From Actinomycetota bacterium (lineage in GTDB: Bacteria > Actinomycetota > Acidimicrobiia > Acidimicrobiales > Ilumatobacteraceae), in contig JAUXQB010000132.1 of assembly GCA_030685215.1 (NCBI GenBank), positions 1 through 35,621 on the forward strand: DNA of 35,621 bases. Reading direction: 5' to 3'. Position 1 is the first letter of the stretch. Each line of letters starts with the position of its first letter. Below, piece by piece: positions 9,752 through 17,947 of the stretch. Both the position numbers and the translations under genes were made by a program. The notes beneath the pieces are model-generated. The model had not been told where the DNA came from and ran no database searches. It worked only from the letters and a program-made list of their open reading frames with translations.

Positions 9752-9915
9752 CCCGACCACGTCATGCCGCATGCGACGAATCCTCGCTCCAGCCATGACA
9801 CAAACGAAGAATCTCCCCCGACGGACGAAACCGCGCCTCAACCCGCGCACGCACCACCCTCCCGACCACGTCATGTCGCATGCGACGAATCCTCGCTCCA
9901 GCCATGACGCAAACG
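9752..9915. repeat. 55-bp direct repeat pair, intergenic
   Basis: Copy 1 (9752-9806) and copy 2 (9861-9915) both begin CCCGACCACGTCATG and end CATGACRCAAACG. They differ at two positions only and lie 109 bp apart start to start. Each copy contains the palindrome CGCATGCG and the segment ATCCTCGCTCCAGCCATG. No convincing gene lies across them; the short open frames they create on both strands repeat the same peptide and are by-products. Confidence 0.75.
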
Positions 9916-9946
9916 GAGAAACCGCCGATGGACCGGGCCGGACCTG

Positions 9947-13333: not shown

Positions 13334-14842
13334 GTGCCGAAACGACTCTCCACCATCACCACGGTGTGGCCGGCAGGGTCTCCGGGAGCCGAGGCCGCGA
13401 CGACCCCACGCTCCGACGTGGTCGACGAGCAGGCAGAGGCCGACGGATCGTTCAGCCAGGCCGTCGGCCCGTTCCGCAGCTACCGCCGCGAGGTCGCGAC
13501 GCACGACGACGGCTCGGTCACCGAAACGACCACCTACCGGCTGAGCATCCCGTGGTTCGGCTGGCTGTTCGCCGGCGCGCTGCGCCGGTCGCTGCGCAGT
13601 CGTCGACCAGAGGGCGCCTCCAGTCCGTGGTGGTCGCCGCCCGACCGGCTCACCGAACGTCAGGCGCGATCGCTCGCGCTGCTGGCGGCCGCCGGCATGT
13701 CGGCCACCTTCGCCAACACGCTGTTCACCCAGACGTCCACGTTCGTCGCCGACAGCTTCGACATCTCCGAACGCGGCCTGGGGCACGCGGGTGCCATCGT
13801 CCGCCTCGGTGTGGTCATCGCGCTGCCGTTCGCGCTGCTGGCGGATCGAGTTGGCCGGCGACGCATGATCGTGCTGCTGGCGTGGTTGACGCCCATCGTC
13901 TGCGCACTCGGCGCGGCGGCCACCAGCTTCCCGCTGCTGGTGGCGACGCAGACCGTGGGCCGCCCGCTCGGCATCGCACTCGCGTTGCTCGCCGCGGTGG
14001 CCGCGGCCGAGGAGATGCCGCGCAACAGTCGCGCCTACGCCGTCAGTGTGCTGGCGATGGCCGCCGGTCTGGGTGCCGGCGTCGCGGTCGCGGCCCTCCG
14101 CCTCACCGACCTCGGGCCGGAAGGGTGGCGGTTGGTCTACCTGCTCTCGCTCGTCTGGCTTCCGGTCGCGGTCAGTCTCGGCCGGCACCTCCTCGAGACC
14201 CGACGCTTCGAGACCATCCACCGCATCGGCGTGCCGATCAATCGAAAGCGACTCGCGCTCATCGCATCGGTGGCGCTGGCCGCGAACATGTTCGTCGCGC
14301 CGGCCTCGTACTTCCAGAACAACTACCTCGACAAGGTGCGCGGCTACAGCGGCGGCGGCATCGCGCTGTTCACACTTGCCACCGGCACACCGGCGTCGCT
14401 CGGCCTGGTGGTCGGCGGCAAGCTGGCCGACGTGGTCGGCCGCCGCCGGCTCATCGCCATCTGCTCGCCCATCTCCACTATCTGCATCACCACCGCGTTC
14501 TTCGTGTCGGGCCCGTCGATGTGGGCGGTGTCGCTCACCGGTGGGTTCATGGCCGCCATGGCCTACCCCGCCTTCGCGGTGTATCGAGCCGAGATGTTCC
14601 CCACCGGCAACCGAGGGATGGCGAACGGTCTCGTCACCGCGACGGCCCTGCTCAGCGGCAGCGTCGGCATCCTGCTGGTGGGGTCGTTGAGGGACCAGGG
14701 ATACAGCTACGGCAGCCTGATGGCGTGCATGGCGCTGGGTCAGCTCACCGCCGCCTTCGTCGCCTACCGCTGGTACCCCGAGACCGCGCACCTGGAGCTG
14801 GAAGCCCTCAACCCCGGTGACCCGGTGATCTCAGAGCGCTGA
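13334..14842 (+). CDS. Major facilitator superfamily transporter
   Basis: 502 aa. An unusual cytoplasmic N-terminus of about 110 residues (acidic, then [19 protein letters not shown]) precedes about 12 membrane helices. The MFS loop 2-3 motif appears as ADRVGRRRM, and its echo in the second half as [13 protein letters not shown], so both halves are intact; [15 protein letters not shown] lies at the start of the second half. It is probably a proton-coupled transporter, substrate unknown. The start is GTG at 13334, 7 nt after TAGCCT and divergent from murA. The last codons (Ser-Glu-Arg-stop) lie inside the left copy of a 31-bp direct repeat that bounds a 2.5 kb insertion, yet the gene is complete. 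Confidence 0.88.
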
Positions 14843-14857
14843 CATCCAGGCGGCCAC
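14827..14857. repeat. Left 31-bp direct repeat bounding the insertion (att-like)
   Basis: The 31 bases begin GATCTCAGAGCGCTGACATC and are identical to 17383-17413. This copy contains the MFS stop codon (TGA at 14840-14842). Its centre TCAGAGCGCTGA holds stop codons for both strands. The sequences outside the two copies differ from the next base on. Confidence 0.9.
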
Positions 14858-15023
14858 GACCGCGACCGGACATCGACCAGCATCGCGGCAGACCCAACTA
14901 GCGGAGTGTCATAGAACGTCTGCCCCTATCACCTACCGGCACTTCCGGGAAGCGTTTCCTTCAGCGAAGGGCGACCGTCGCCGTTCGATCCGTCATGTCG
15001 GTCGGGCCCGTGGAGAACGCAGG

Positions 15024-15578
15024 TCACGGTTGAAGCGGCTCACGGAGCCCGGCGATGAGCCCCTCTGAGGTGATCCGCAGGCGACCCGGCCGGGCCGCCG
15101 AGAACTGGCTGTACAACGCAGGCGAACGAGCTTCCAGACTGGTCAACCACGTTGCGAACACCGCGAGCACCGTTGGCAACTGCATCTCAATCCACTCGTC
15201 CCAGCGATGTCCCGGCTCGGCTCGAACAAGGCCGAGATGTGCGAGCCGACCGTTGAGTTGATCCATCTTCAGGAGGTCACGGTCCGGCCGCCACGCCCAG
15301 TCAGGCACGAAGTCCCGTGCCGAGACGCGATTGCCCTTCTGCTCGCCGAGGAACTCGATCACGCAGCGAATGTGCACGAGTCCCGCCTCGAGGAGCGAGT
15401 TTCGGACGACCTGCTCAACCTCGTTTCGATTGCCCCGAGCAGCGAACAGCAGGAGCTGCTGAACCTCGTAGTGGACAGGGTCGAGCATCTGAGCGAGTAG
15501 CGCAGCTGTCTTGGTCGGAGGCTTCGAACCCACACCAGCAGTCCGTCGTGCTCGCAGAGCGCGCTGAGCCGTCTCCAC
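15024..15578 (-). CDS. Unknown helical protein in the insertion
   Basis: 184 aa, no family recognised. It is predicted mostly alpha-helical, with HYEVQQLLLFAARG, then NSLLEAGLVHIRCVIEFLG and a Trp-rich middle (FVPDWAWRPDRD). The buried 'E..LVH.R..I.FL' helix is reminiscent of small all-alpha proteins that accompany mobile DNA, but this is not enough to name a domain. The start is GTG at 15578; ATG at 15488 (MLDPVHYEV) is equally possible, because the first 30 residues are basic and low in structure. No promoter or Shine-Dalgarno site decides it. It is the largest gene of the insertion and points toward its left end. Confidence 0.6.
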   Translation of the reverse strand: METAQRALRARRTAGVGSKPPTKTAALLAQMLDPVHYEVQQLLLFAARGNRNEVEQVVRNSLLEAGLVHIRCVIEFLGEQKGNRVSARDFVPDWAWRPDRDLLKMDQLNGRLAHLGLVRAEPGHRWDEWIEMQLPTVLAVFATWLTSLEARSPALYSQFSAARPGRLRITSEGLIAGLREPLQP

Positions 15579-15660
15579 AGAGTCGCCCTGTCGCAGACGG
15601 CGTCATGCGGTCCCGATCACCCTGGCGACGGAGCGCCGGGCGGGCAGCGCTGCGCCGCCC

Positions 15661-15823
15661 CGCGTCCGCGGACGCGTGGCTCGTGCTCGTCAACAACTCT
15701 GTAACAGGCCTTGATGACGCTGATCGCGCGAGCGCGATCGAGAACACGATGCTGGTCCGATTGACCCGAGTCGACGGTCCCCAGGCGCCGAGCTTTCTTA
15801 CGTGGCGCGCGTCCGCGGACGCG
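15661..15823. repeat. Two identical 16-bp palindromes plus an 18-bp palindrome
   Basis: CGCGTCCGCGGACGCG occurs at 15661-15676 and again at 15808-15823; each copy is its own reverse complement. Between them GATCGCGC-GA-GCGCGATC (15722-15739) is a further inverted repeat. The whole stretch 15579-15916 has no convincing gene. It may be a binding region for a regulator or a replication or recombination protein. Confidence 0.7.
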
Positions 15824-15916
15824 TGCCCCGACGACTGCCCGACAGCCAGCGCGGGACGAGGTTCTTTCAGCGCCGCTATCGGCAGTTCTGCGCGGGCGGT
15901 CCGGAGCCCGTTCGCG

Positions 15917-16153
15917 CTATTTCGTACCGCGGCGACCCGTGGTGAACAGACCGGCGAGCATCAAGGCCATCCCGATGACACCGGCGAGCCATAGCGATTT
16001 GCCCGCGTACCAGACACCGATCGTCGCAAGCCACACGGCAACGGCGACCCACCATTCGATGGACGGCTGGTGACGCACCGAGCGGTAGATCGCTACTGCG
16101 AGAGCAGCGACCGGCACCGCGACGATCGCAAGCACCATCAGGTAGATCAGCAC
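15917..16153 (-). CDS. Small membrane protein in the insertion (78 aa)
   Basis: Three hydrophobic segments are clear: MVLAIVAVPVAALAVAIY near the N-terminus, WWVAVAVWLATIGVWY, and LAGVIGMALMLAGLF before a basic end (TTGRRGTK). It is an integral membrane protein of unknown role. The GTG start at 16153 is supported by TAGCGT exactly 6 nt upstream on the minus strand, the same arrangement as the chromosomal leaderless genes, so it is probably expressed. No relative is recognised. Confidence 0.65.
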   Translation of the reverse strand: MLIYLMVLAIVAVPVAALAVAIYRSVRHQPSIEWWVAVAVWLATIGVWYAGKSLWLAGVIGMALMLAGLFTTGRRGTK

Positions 16154-16159
16154 ATGTCC

Positions 16160-16165
16160 ACGCTA
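16160..16165 (-). promoter_or_regulatory. Putative -10 (TAGCGT) of the small membrane protein
   Basis: On the minus strand TAGCGT is followed by 6 nt and the GTG at 16153. No Shine-Dalgarno sequence is present. Confidence 0.4.
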
Positions 16166-16359
16166 AGGGACGAGCAGATCGGCATACCTGCGCTACGCAC
16201 GGAGGGTGGGTTGGTGCGCGATCATGGGCCGGTGAGACGAAGCCTGCGGCGTACAAACTGCGGTGCAACGTCTATCTCGAGAAGTCGGGCGACCGATCAG
16301 TCGTCGCTCAATGCTTCAACCACTCAGGACTGCAAGCCGAGATTGCAGGTGCTGCCCGG

Positions 16360-16704
16360 TTGATCTCTGCGACTGATGACGAAGTGCTCGGCGGCGAGAC
16401 GCTGACAGCACTCGACGCCTGCCGCTGGGGACCGTCGTTCAACTATCGCGACGCCAAGCTGACCGACTGGCCGGCCTACCAAGCGTCGGGTGAGACGTCC
16501 GTCAAACGATTCGAGCAGCGATGGCGCAAACTTCGTGTCGCAGGCGCCAACGAGCACAACCTCATGTGGGAACTCTCCGTCAAACTGGACCGGGACCACG
16601 ACCTAGCGCTGACCGCGACAGTGGCACACCGCGACGATCGCACGCGACTGGGCGAAGCCCTTACCTACGTGAACCACCAGGCCCAACTCTTCGAAGGTTT
16701 GTGA
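16360..16704 (+). CDS. Unknown protein, possibly 5'-damaged
   Basis: From TTG at 16360 the frame gives 114 aa (ISATDDEVLGGETLTAL ... NHQAQLFEGL). The same frame is open and looks coding upstream of this (KLRCNVYLEKSGDRSVV and QCFNHSGLQAEIAGAARL, from about 16255). It reaches back to about 16153 without any ATG, GTG or TTG. An ATG at 16154 (MSTLRDEQIGIPAL) lies in a neighbouring frame. A single frameshift between about 16230 and 16255 would join them into one protein of about 180 aa, so this may be a broken gene, or it may start at a rare codon (CTG 16258). The family is unknown. A hairpin follows the stop directly. Confidence 0.45.
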   Translation: MISATDDEVLGGETLTALDACRWGPSFNYRDAKLTDWPAYQASGETSVKRFEQRWRKLRVAGANEHNLMWELSVKLDRDHDLALTATVAHRDDRTRLGEALTYVNHQAQLFEGL

Positions 16705-16734
16705 GACCCCTGGTCCGGTGCGAGCCAGGGTCTC
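16703..16734 (+). terminator. Hairpin at the stop of the 16360 ORF
   Basis: GAGACCCCTGG (16703-16713) pairs with CCAGGGTCTC (16725-16734) with one bulged base. It begins inside the stop codon. No T-run follows. Confidence 0.5.
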
Positions 16735-16746
16735 GAAGGGCATATC

Positions 16747-16790
16747 CGCCGCCACGAGCGGCGATCTCCCCAGACCTATCGGCAGATAGG
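16747..16790. repeat. Two further hairpins in the insertion
   Basis: CGCCGC-CACGA-GCGGCG (16747-16763) and CCTATC-GGCA-GATAGG (16775-16790) are perfect stem-loops that directly follow the terminator-like hairpin at 16703-16734. They stand in the leader of the next small gene. Confidence 0.55.
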
Positions 16791-16819
16791 CCGCACCGTG
16801 GTCGTGTAGAACAGTCGGC

Positions 16820-17038
16820 GTGTCGATTACAGAGCGCGTTCGCGTGGTGCTGCGTGGCAAGGGGACCTGCACCCGATGCGGGTCCAGCACTGGGCATGCC
16901 TTCATCCACTGGGCACCCGACGAGCCTCGCCCCAAGTTGCGGGATCACGTCGTCGTCTGCTCCTCGTGTCACACGGTGTTCACCAGCCACCGCGGCCGAC
17001 TTCGCGTGTGGTGCCCAGGCGGTGCCAATAGCGCCTAG
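16820..17038 (+). CDS. Small zinc-finger/HNH-like protein (72 aa)
   Basis: The protein contains GTCTRCGS, then HAFIHWAPDE, then VVVCSSCHTVF. Two CxxC pairs framing a His-containing segment, with CxxCH at the second, look like a Zn-binding treble-clef/HNH fold. The Asp/Asn-His catalytic pair of active HNH nucleases is not clear, so it may be DNA-binding only. The start is GTG at 16820; TAGAAC lies 7 nt upstream, a weaker version of the leaderless hexamer. It is a plausible DNA-handling protein for a mobile element, but that is inference. Confidence 0.5.
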   Translation: MSITERVRVVLRGKGTCTRCGSSTGHAFIHWAPDEPRPKLRDHVVVCSSCHTVFTSHRGRLRVWCPGGANSA

Positions 17039-17072
17039 TGCCCGCTATGTGCGCATGGCGCAAGCCGCTGGA

Positions 17073-17098
17073 GCGCACAGATCGTTTGATCTGAGCGC
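17073..17098 (+). terminator. Long hairpin after the zinc-finger gene
   Basis: GCGC-A-CAGATC (17073-17083) pairs with GATCTG-A-GCGC (17088-17098) around a GTTT loop, broken only by one A-A mismatch. It lies 34 bases past the stop at 17038. No T-run follows. The stretch 17099-17193 shows nothing else. Confidence 0.45.
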
Positions 17099-17193
17099 AT
17101 CCCCGCCGCCGGATCTGGGGCAGCGGCTCGACAGCGGTGCCCGGAGTGGAGCAAGGTCAAGTTCTTGCTCATTCGCAAGTCGTAGACCGCACG

Positions 17194-17361
17194 TCAGCTC
17201 TCCAAGGGCGTTCGCTCGCCGGCCGATTCAAAGGAGGCCAAGTTGACCTGGAGGCCGTCGGCGTAGAAGATCCCGGTTGGCGGCCGCGGGCCACGCTCGA
17301 AGAGCACGATGTCTGGCACGACTACTACGGCTATCGTCACAGTCGAGGTCGCAATCGGCAC
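17194..17361 (-). CDS. Possible small protein at the right end of the insertion (55 aa)
   Basis: From GTG at 17361 (or GTG at 17340) to TGA the frame encodes TVTIAVVVVPDIVLFERG, then PPTGIFYADGLQVNLASF, with alternating beta-like hydrophobic strands and normal amino-acid balance, unlike the Arg-rich shadow frames around it. No family is recognised and no ribosome binding site is clear. This is a weak call. Confidence 0.3.
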   Translation of the reverse strand: MPIATSTVTIAVVVVPDIVLFERGPRPPTGIFYADGLQVNLASFESAGERTPLES

Positions 17362-17382
17362 ACGCTCTCACGTTCGCGTAAG

Positions 17383-17413
17383 GATCTCAGAGCGCTGACA
17401 TCCAGGCGGCCAC
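17383..17413. repeat. Right 31-bp direct repeat bounding the insertion (att-like)
   Basis: Identical to 14827-14857. This copy contains the last codons and stop (TGA, minus strand, 17387-17389) of the alpha/beta hydrolase gene. Confidence 0.9.
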
Positions 17414-17947
17414 CAACTGAGCGATGCGTTGGTCGCAGCCCTTCAGGTCGTGGCCCTTGCCGTCGAGCCACTCGTGGGTGACGGGGCCGGGGATGGTGGC
17501 GGTCCACTGCTGCAGCTCGTCGGGCGTACCGAACGTGTCGCGGGTGCCGGAGATGAACAGGCACGGCACGGTGAGCCGCGGGAAGTGCTCGACGCGCAAC
17601 CGATCGGGCTTGCCGGGTGGATGCAGCGGGTAGCAGATGAGCACCAGACCCTTGGCCGGCAGCGGGTCGGTCTCGTCGCCGACCACCATCGAACAGATGC
17701 GTCCGCCCATCGAACGTCCACCGAGCACCAGCCCGTCGGGAGGTGTGAGCGCGGCCAGCATCGGCGCGGCGTGTTCACGCACGGTCTGCAGCAGCACCGG
17801 TGGACGGTCAGGTGCTCGACGGCCGGCGAGTCGGTAGGGGAAGTCGGCGCGCACGCACGGCGCGGGCACGATGGCGGCCTCGATGGCGACGAGGCTGGCG
17901 TGCGTGCTGGACGAGCCGGCGCCGGGGAAGAGCAGCAGGCTGTTCAT
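17387..17947 (-). CDS. Alpha/beta hydrolase (KANL3/Tex30- or dienelactone-hydrolase-like)
   Basis: 186 aa, a minimal alpha/beta hydrolase. It starts with the first strand and turn (LLLFPGAGSSSTH). The nucleophile elbow is LGGRSMGGR (Ser79), the acid SGTRDTFG (Asp137) and the base GKGHDLKG (His166), so the catalytic triad looks intact. It is a cytoplasmic esterase-type enzyme of unknown substrate. ATG 17947 overlaps the upstream J-domain gene by 4 nt; it is the last gene of a four-gene operon. Its last residues Met-Ser-Ala-Leu and stop lie in the right copy of the 31-bp repeat, so the adjacent insertion left it complete. Confidence 0.82.
   Translation of the reverse strand: MNSLLLFPGAGSSSTHASLVAIEAAIVPAPCVRADFPYRLAGRRAPDRPPVLLQTVREHAAPMLAALTPPDGLVLGGRSMGGRICSMVVGDETDPLPAKGLVLICYPLHPPGKPDRLRVEHFPRLTVPCLFISGTRDTFGTPDELQQWTATIPGPVTHEWLDGKGHDLKGCDQRIAQLVAAWMSAL

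What the first reader, a model, noticed from the sequence alone, without database searches (positions are those of the whole stretch)
14827..17413. Insertion with a 31-bp direct repeat placed exactly on the shared stop codons of two convergent genes
14827-14857 and 17383-17413 are identical over 31 bases and diverge at once outside. The left copy completes the plus-strand MFS gene (…Ser-Glu-Arg-stop); the right copy completes the minus-strand hydrolase gene (…Met-Ser-Ala-Leu-stop). Without the insertion the two stops overlap in TCAGAGCGCTGA. The element is thus neutral to both neighbours, as expected of an att site in a gene 3' end, but here the target is a protein-coding overlap rather than a tRNA, and no integrase is inside. 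It could be a class of small cargo elements mobilised in trans.
Basis: partly seen in the sequence, partly recalled or inferred. Interest (0 to 1): 0.8.

Follow-up and report, generated by a model that had tools for sequence, protein, structure and literature searches.

The report
Small gene island flanked by repeats
A 2.5-kb piece of foreign-looking DNA sits between two bacterial genes whose ends probably used to overlap, with a 31-base copy of their shared end on each side so that neither gene is harmed; it looks like a small, worn genomic island without its own integration enzyme, an ordinary kind of thing in a neat place.

Summary
In detail: 14827-14857 and 17383-17413 are identical over 31 bases and complete the MFS gene (+) and the hydrolase gene (-). 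None of 14 same-genus genomes carries the insert; in 13 the two gene ends lie between 38 bases overlapping and 80 apart (the 14th lacks the hydrolase), and 4 keep the exact 12-base stop overlap. The 2525-base insert has GC 0.646 (surroundings about 0.70), orphan ORFs, a probable worn type I methylase fragment at its right end, and no recombinase found. Of 48 loci with the gene pair in a wider scan, 2 have other inserts here without repeats, so this is not a seen att hotspot. The same scan found a 44-base tRNA-Glu repeat around 4.8 kb without recombinase in a sister genome, and a 47-base repeat around 4.1 kb in this one. Best reading: a small recombinase-less, CIME-like island placed by a site-specific recombinase. 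Target duplication during fragment capture is the main rival and is not excluded. Mobilisation in trans is possible but not shown.

The parts
14827..14857 (.). left copy of the 31-base direct repeat; holds the end of the MFS gene
17383..17413 (.). right copy of the 31-base direct repeat; holds the end of the hydrolase gene
14831..14842 (.). TCAGAGCGCTGA, the 12 bases in which the two stop codons overlap in the empty site (second copy at 17387-17398)
   Evidence: the same overlap in 4 of 14 same-genus loci
14858..17382 (.). insert, 2525 bases, GC 0.646, no recombinase gene found
13334..14842 (+). MFS transporter, 502 aa, intact
17387..17947 (-). alpha/beta hydrolase, 186 aa, intact
   Evidence: PF20408
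17944..18645 (-). conserved 233-aa neighbour gene (DnaJ-like by my reading, no family search), used to check synteny
15024..15578 (-). ORF A, 184 aa, orphan; GC3 0.72 against 0.87-0.89 in the flanking genes
15917..16162 (-). ORF B, 81-aa open frame, hydrophobic (membrane-like by eye)
16225..16704 (+). ORF C, orphan; frame open from 15979, no clear start codon
16820..17038 (+). ORF D, about 72 aa, cysteine-rich, zinc-ribbon/HNH-like; only sub-threshold hits (phrog_8048 HNH E 0.051; Pfam WD40_RLD 0.054, recombinase zinc ribbon PF13408 0.14, others)
17197..17367 (-). fragment E, probable relic of a type I methyltransferase (HsdM): two collinear motifs, about 18 residues missing between them; no methylase hit in Pfam or NCBIfam
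   Evidence: PDLC03026, E 7.1e-5; PDB 2okc, 2y7c, 2ar0, E 0.005-0.018; against: 16, 77
17029..17130 (+). hairpin-bearing repeat, also on own contigs C68 and C70 (77-78% identical)
15661..15676 (.). palindrome CGCGTCCGCGGACGCG (again at 15808-15823); among the own stretches scanned also on C274 (3 copies) and C136 (1 copy)
14906..14943 (+). short segment beginning 48 bases inside the left end, 87% identical to a place on own contig C227 (E 7.7e-4) and partly to C276 (E 0.0094)

Best explanation
A small, worn genomic island whose 31-base flanks are the attL and attR left by a site-specific (most likely tyrosine) recombinase. Steps: (1) the ancestral junction was MFS and hydrolase overlapping by 12 bases at their stops [shown by sister species]; (2) DNA carrying the same 31 bases recombined there, so each gene kept its end [position and repeat shown; recombination inferred]; (3) the unit now has orphan ORFs and a probable methylase relic and no recombinase, which was lost by deletion or supplied in trans at the time [absence shown at the sensitivity of the searches; cause inferred]. 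It probably does little for the host and can leave again only if a recombinase of the right specificity is present [inferred].
For: Exact repeat and intact genes. Insert derived: 0 of 14 same-genus genomes have it. Foreign composition: GC 0.646, GC3 0.72-0.78 in ORFs A-D against 0.87-0.89 in MFS and hydrolase. Tyrosine-integrase att repeats are given as 8-60 bases, and 3' ends of protein genes kept whole by the repeat are usual targets (PMC5704250, passages). The same scan in 200 kb of the sister genome G004 found an att-like case at a tRNA: a 44-base repeat at the 3' end of tRNA-Glu around 4.8 kb (GC 0.59), with no integrase among 6 ORFs scanned and none of G004's 3 tyrosine or 3 large serine recombinase matches on that contig. 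This genome has tyrosine integrases, two of them in loci that also hold a tmRNA and a tRNA-Arg gene. A restriction-modification relic is typical island content (general knowledge).
Against: No recombinase found in the insert: none of the 7 PF00589 matches of this genome lies on the window's contig and there is no PF07508 match; family scans of its open frames gave nothing above threshold, only a sub-threshold recombinase-zinc-ribbon hit in ORF D (E 0.14). No second element with this core: own genome, 0 viral contigs for the 21-base core. At this junction 2 of 48 loci have other inserts, without repeats. Both copies match this species' own junction at 31 of 31 while four sister species differ at 5 to 9 positions, so the incoming DNA would have to come from the same species; target duplication explains this at least as well. 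The repeat is longer than the 16-20 bases called usual for islands in one review (PMC2704930, passages). The weak palindrome in the repeat is unremarkable: 140 of 2000 random 31-mers of the window score as high.
Confidence: 0.55

Rival explanations
1. Capture of a linear DNA fragment at a break with long staggered ends: filling in the ends and joining (for example by Ku/LigD-type end joining, which many actinobacteria have; recalled) duplicates the 31 target bases on both sides. No recombinase and no att site are needed, and the neutral position is due to selection.
For: The repeat is identical to the species' own junction at all 31 places, with abrupt ends. No recombinase found in the insert. 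A second case in this genome, L104, has a 47-base repeat of different sequence at the start of a GNAT-like gene, so length and sequence vary. The right end of the insert is a probable broken gene.
Against: A 31-base stagger is long. The insert shares repeats with other variable places of this genome, as island DNA would. The sister genome has an att-like tRNA island without a recombinase. I did not test whether Ku/LigD are present.
Confidence: 0.27
2. A mobile class of cargo elements that never carry a recombinase and are moved in trans by a resident integrase.
For: The repeat copies are identical, including 19 positions that are non-coding in one of the copies (15 right of the MFS stop, 4 left of the hydrolase stop), so the insertion looks recent, while the methylase relic inside is already worn: the unit may have travelled without an integrase. 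Similar recombinase-less repeat-flanked units: L104 and the G004 tRNA-Glu island.
Against: The three units have no DNA similarity to each other by blastn at E <= 0.1 and no common core, so they do not look like one family; their proteins were not compared. No helper with a matching core was found. A single recent deletion of the integrase explains the same picture.
Confidence: 0.12
3. Assembly or strain-mixture artefact: a separate molecule bearing the 31-base sequence was joined into the contig.
For: The genome is in 340 contigs, no reads were available, and one other contig (C5, L189) starts with a 99-base repeat that looks like an assembly end.
Against: An accidental join would still need the 31 bases at both ends of the foreign piece. 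Parts of the insert recur elsewhere in this genome, which argues against a contaminant.
Confidence: 0.04
4. Transposon-like insertion with an unusually long target-site duplication.
For: A duplicated target flanks the insert.
Against: No inverted repeat joins the two ends among the 25 of 41 pairs shown, nor by eye; no transposase hit; the outermost ends do not recur in the genome, only a segment 48 bases inside the left end does, weakly.
Confidence: 0.02

Closest known systems
CIME (cis-mobilizable element), for example in Streptococcus salivarius and S. agalactiae (PMC7563491, passages)
   Same: Small (1.2-13 kb for classical CIMEs there) unit between direct repeats at a gene end, no integrase, no transfer genes, cargo only.
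   Different: No related ICE/IME, no accretion partner and no shared integration site found here; descent from a conjugative element is unproven.
ssrA genomic islands of Dehalococcoides without integration module (PMC3146451, passages)
   Same: Islands between direct repeats with cargo and no recombinase (15 reported there).
   Different: Those stand among tandem islands, many with recombinases, at one tmRNA gene; here a single insert at a protein-gene junction.
IMEs and islands in 3' ends of protein genes (guaA, rpsI, trmE, yicC; PMC5704250, passages and part of a table)
   Same: The repeat restores the gene end; tyrosine att repeats of 8-60 bases.
   Different: They encode an integrase; here none was found, and the repeat restores two overlapping convergent genes at once.

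Membership tests
genomic island (horizontally acquired insert) | absent at the same place in relatives | tested here: met
   0 of 14 same-genus genomes carry it
genomic island (horizontally acquired insert) | composition unlike the host | tested here: met
   GC 0.646; GC3 0.72-0.78 against 0.87-0.89
genomic island (horizontally acquired insert) | flanking direct repeats | tested here: met
   31 of 31 bases
CIME | no integrase and no transfer genes | tested here: met
   no hit of that kind above threshold
CIME | flanks are functional attL/attR | not testable with these tools
   repeat present; recombination cannot be assayed
CIME | derived from an ICE/IME by deletion | tested here: inconclusive
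   only a probable methylase relic; no conjugation or mobilisation remnant found
CIME | shares its integration site with an ICE or IME | tested here: not met
   none seen at this junction in the 80 loci; no matching core at resident integrases
IME at a protein-gene 3' end | own integrase | tested here: not met
transposon / insertion sequence | terminal inverted repeats and transposase | tested here: not met
   (25 of 41 pairs shown)
integron cassette array | attC sites | not tested
   the 17029-17130 repeat was only inspected by eye

The most novel reading that the evidence does not exclude
Ilumatobacteraceae carry several small recombinase-free cargo units bounded by 30-50-base repeats (this one, the 47-base unit on contig C131, the tRNA-Glu unit of the sister genome), moved in trans by unlinked recombinases into gene ends, including a junction where one att site restores two overlapping convergent protein genes.
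Probability: 0.14. Interest if true: 0.65.

Novelty: new member of a known kind. Interest (0 to 1): 0.36.

Why it matters
It is a clean case, with empty junctions in sister species, of foreign DNA entering a packed gene junction without harm to either gene: the duplicated stretch covers the whole stop overlap. If the 31 bases prove to be an att site, overlapping convergent stops are a further kind of safe integration target beside tRNA genes and single protein-gene ends. If they prove to be a fill-in duplication, it shows a recombinase-free way by which small cargo enters actinobacterial genomes.

Tried and rejected
Recombinase hidden in the insert: Pfam on 5 insert frames (with the two flanking genes) and on 10 further open frames, PHROGs, PADLOC and NCBIfam on the 5 frames, six-frame searches of the whole genome for PF00589 and PF07508: nothing above threshold in the insert; ORF D has sub-threshold hits, among them a recombinase zinc ribbon (E 0.14). 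Rfam on 14700-17600: none. Insert DNA in plasmid and phage records: none. ORF A in plasmids: none. Fragment E in plasmids: one weak place (E 0.4) without annotation. ORFs A, C and D in viral contigs: no relative. ORF A: own plus 2 weak hits among 298 order genomes, own only among 396 phylum genomes. ORF C: own plus 1 weak hit, broken by stops, among 395 class genomes.

Second case C131 (L104): the empty-site test failed because neither GNAT-like neighbour has a clear counterpart in the genus; kept as suggestive only. The C68/C70 shared sequence first looked like an element end; I read it as the edge of an IS110-type insertion sequence (by eye). The palindrome in the 31 bases is not above background. 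Other pairs in the own-genome scan were set aside by eye: L118 (44, 33 and 30 bases, paralogous genes), L112 (34 bases, short-spaced intergenic repeat), L189 (99 bases, contig start), L073 (the palindrome), and the remaining pairs of 20-26 bases. Structure models of ORFs A and C were too poor to search with (pLDDT 47.1 and 31.2). Papers: of six answered searches (listings and abstract starts) only asked for convergent genes or overlapping stops as integration site; no fitting title was seen.
Full report
The observation. The 31-base sequence at 14827-14857 recurs exactly at 17383-17413. The left copy completes the MFS gene 13334-14842; the right copy completes the hydrolase gene 17387-17947 on the other strand. 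Outside the repeat the two places differ at once. By base composition 8e-9 such pairs are expected in the window. A search of the own genome (4.32 Mb, 340 contigs) found the 31-mer at these two places and no other at E <= 0.001 (40 of 51 first-look candidates scored).

The empty site. The MFS gene was found in 59 of 61 genomes (relatives plus own). All 14 other held genomes of the genus have it and none has the insert: in 13 the hydrolase stop lies from 38 bases overlapping to 80 bases beyond the MFS stop; in 1 (L013) no hydrolase was found and the DnaJ-like gene follows after about 19 bases. Four of the 14 have exactly the 12-base overlap TCAGAGnnCTGA. For L010 the gap was counted from a stop behind an earlier in-frame stop; this does not change the range. 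In 48 of 80 a convergent hydrolase is present; 46 of 48 have a gap of -62 to +99 bases and 10 of 48 exactly -12. In the other 32 no convergent hydrolase was hit (absent, too diverged or contig end; not examined one by one, except L291). Two of 48 have inserts: L241 (Desertimonas flava, 3809 bases) and L267 (1456 bases); L291 has 1350 bases before the DnaJ-like gene. None of the three has an exact direct repeat of 12 bases or more at its edges. So inserts occur here rarely, by more than one route, and only the window's has the repeat. No other strain of the window's own species was available.

The insert. 2525 bases, GC 0.646 in surroundings of about 0.70. ORFs A to D are orphans with GC3 0.72-0.78 against 0.87-0.89 in the flanking genes. 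Fragment E at the right end matches type I methyltransferases in two collinear motifs with about 18 residues missing between them (PADLOC E 7.1e-5; three PDB sequences E 0.005-0.018). Pfam and NCBIfam show no methylase hit, so I call it a probable HsdM relic. Pieces of the insert recur at other places of the genome: a hairpin repeat on C68 and C70, a palindrome on C274, and weakly a short left-end segment on C227 and C276. This speaks for accessory DNA of this organism and against a contaminant. No recombinase, transposase or transfer gene was found above threshold; ORF D has several sub-threshold hits, among them an HNH family (E 0.051) and a recombinase zinc ribbon (E 0.14).

Is it one of several? 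I scanned 106 pieces of the own genome (105 stretches and the window, 1.31 Mb of 4.32 Mb) for exact repeats of 20 bases or more, 150-20000 bases apart or up to 30000. Besides the window, one pair looks like the same anatomy: 47 bases on contig C131 (L104 3858-3904 and 8022-8068) around a phosphoesterase-like gene (by eye), a PPDK/PEP-utiliser protein and a 309-aa ORF. Its left copy is the start of a GNAT-like gene (by eye). Its GC is that of the host (0.699), and its empty site could not be tested. None of the own PF00589 matches lies on C131 or on the window's contig. In 200 kb of the same-genus genome G004 the scan found a 44-base repeat at the 3' end of tRNA-Glu around 4.8 kb, GC 0.59. Of six ORFs scanned from it one has hits (HTH plus IrrE-like) and none is an integrase, and no PF00589 or PF07508 match of G004 lies on that contig. 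I did not check its empty site. In 200 kb of G025 no pair of 28 bases or more stood 1-20 kb apart outside a tandem-repeat array. In 80 relatives' loci (837 kb) two pairs of 24 bases or more at 400 bases or more came up, L251 and L267; L251 surrounds a gene with a REase_MTES_1575 match just under the cut-off. The window unit, the C131 unit and the tRNA unit show no DNA similarity to each other by blastn at E <= 0.1, so they do not look like one family with one recombinase.

Mechanism. A site-specific recombinase is the best reading: repeat length and position fit tyrosine-integrase att sites in protein-gene 3' ends (PMC5704250, passages), and integrase-less units of this size are known (PMC7563491; PMC3146451; passages only). 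The genome has 7 tyrosine-recombinase matches on 6 contigs, two of them in loci with a tmRNA and a tRNA-Arg gene. Loci of 2.4-3.5 kb around them hold at best 17-20 of the 31 bases, and no large serine recombinase was found. Against it: both copies equal this species' own junction at all 31 positions, although the four sister species that keep the overlap differ at 5 to 9 of them. An element from outside the species should show mismatches; one from inside the species, or a fill-in duplication of the target, would not. The position does not decide between them: any insert that duplicates at least the 12 overlap bases spares both genes, and others would be selected against. The equal copies, with 19 positions non-coding in one copy, suggest a recent insertion of already worn DNA, which fits either travel without an integrase or fragment capture.

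Verdict. Observation confirmed; att and trans-mobilisation readings plausible but unproven. I file it as a small repeat-flanked, recombinase-less genomic island, CIME-like in anatomy, not as a CIME, since a shared site with an ICE or IME was tested and not met. The double neutrality at overlapping convergent stops is neat. My paper searches (listings and abstract starts; passages of five papers) showed no earlier report of it, but only asked for it. It follows from the repeat covering the overlap and needs no new mechanism.

Noticed in passing
L104 (own contig C131:20001-35890) 3858-3904 and 8022-8068: 47-base exact direct repeat around 4.1 kb (phosphoesterase-like gene, PPDK/PEP-utiliser protein, 309-aa ORF); the left copy is the start of a GNAT-like gene. 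A second repeat-flanked unit without integrase in this genome; empty site untestable in the genus.
   Followed up: partly
L211 (G004 contig C17:460001-480000) 3595-3638 and 8400-8443: 44-base repeat at the 3' end of tRNA-Glu around 4.8 kb, GC 0.59, with an HTH/IrrE-like gene and small orphan ORFs; no recombinase found.
   Followed up: partly
L073 (own contig C274:20000-32000) 5033, 5194, 6365: A DUF222 gene (13E12-repeat kind, recalled) flanked by copies of the palindrome CGCGTCCGCGGACGCG, the same palindrome that stands twice in the window's insert.
   Followed up: partly
window 17029-17130; own contigs C68:4214-4317 and C70:560-630: About 100-base hairpin-bearing repeat; on C68 and C70 it stands close to the 3' end of a core-like gene (gcvT-like, SGNH-hydrolase-like, by eye), beside an IS110-type sequence (by eye).
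   Followed up: partly
window 9752-9826 and 9861-9933; L112 1347-1575: Intergenic repeat with the core ATGGCTGGAGCGAG in two window copies (89% identical) and in a short-spaced array on own contig C315: a dispersed repeat family.
   Followed up: no
L251 1790-1828 and 2897-2935: A gene with a REase_MTES_1575 match just under the Pfam cut-off, flanked by a 39-base repeat with a further partial copy, in a relative.
   Followed up: no
L309 (own contig C128:1985-5488): Two tyrosine recombinase genes side by side (open frames of 364 and 448 aa), as in multi-recombinase elements (recalled).
   Followed up: no
L267 4571-4597 and 8930-8956: 27-base palindromic repeat before the MFS gene and again just before the hydrolase stop, bracketing a stretch with MFS and a 1.4-kb insert.
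   Followed up: no
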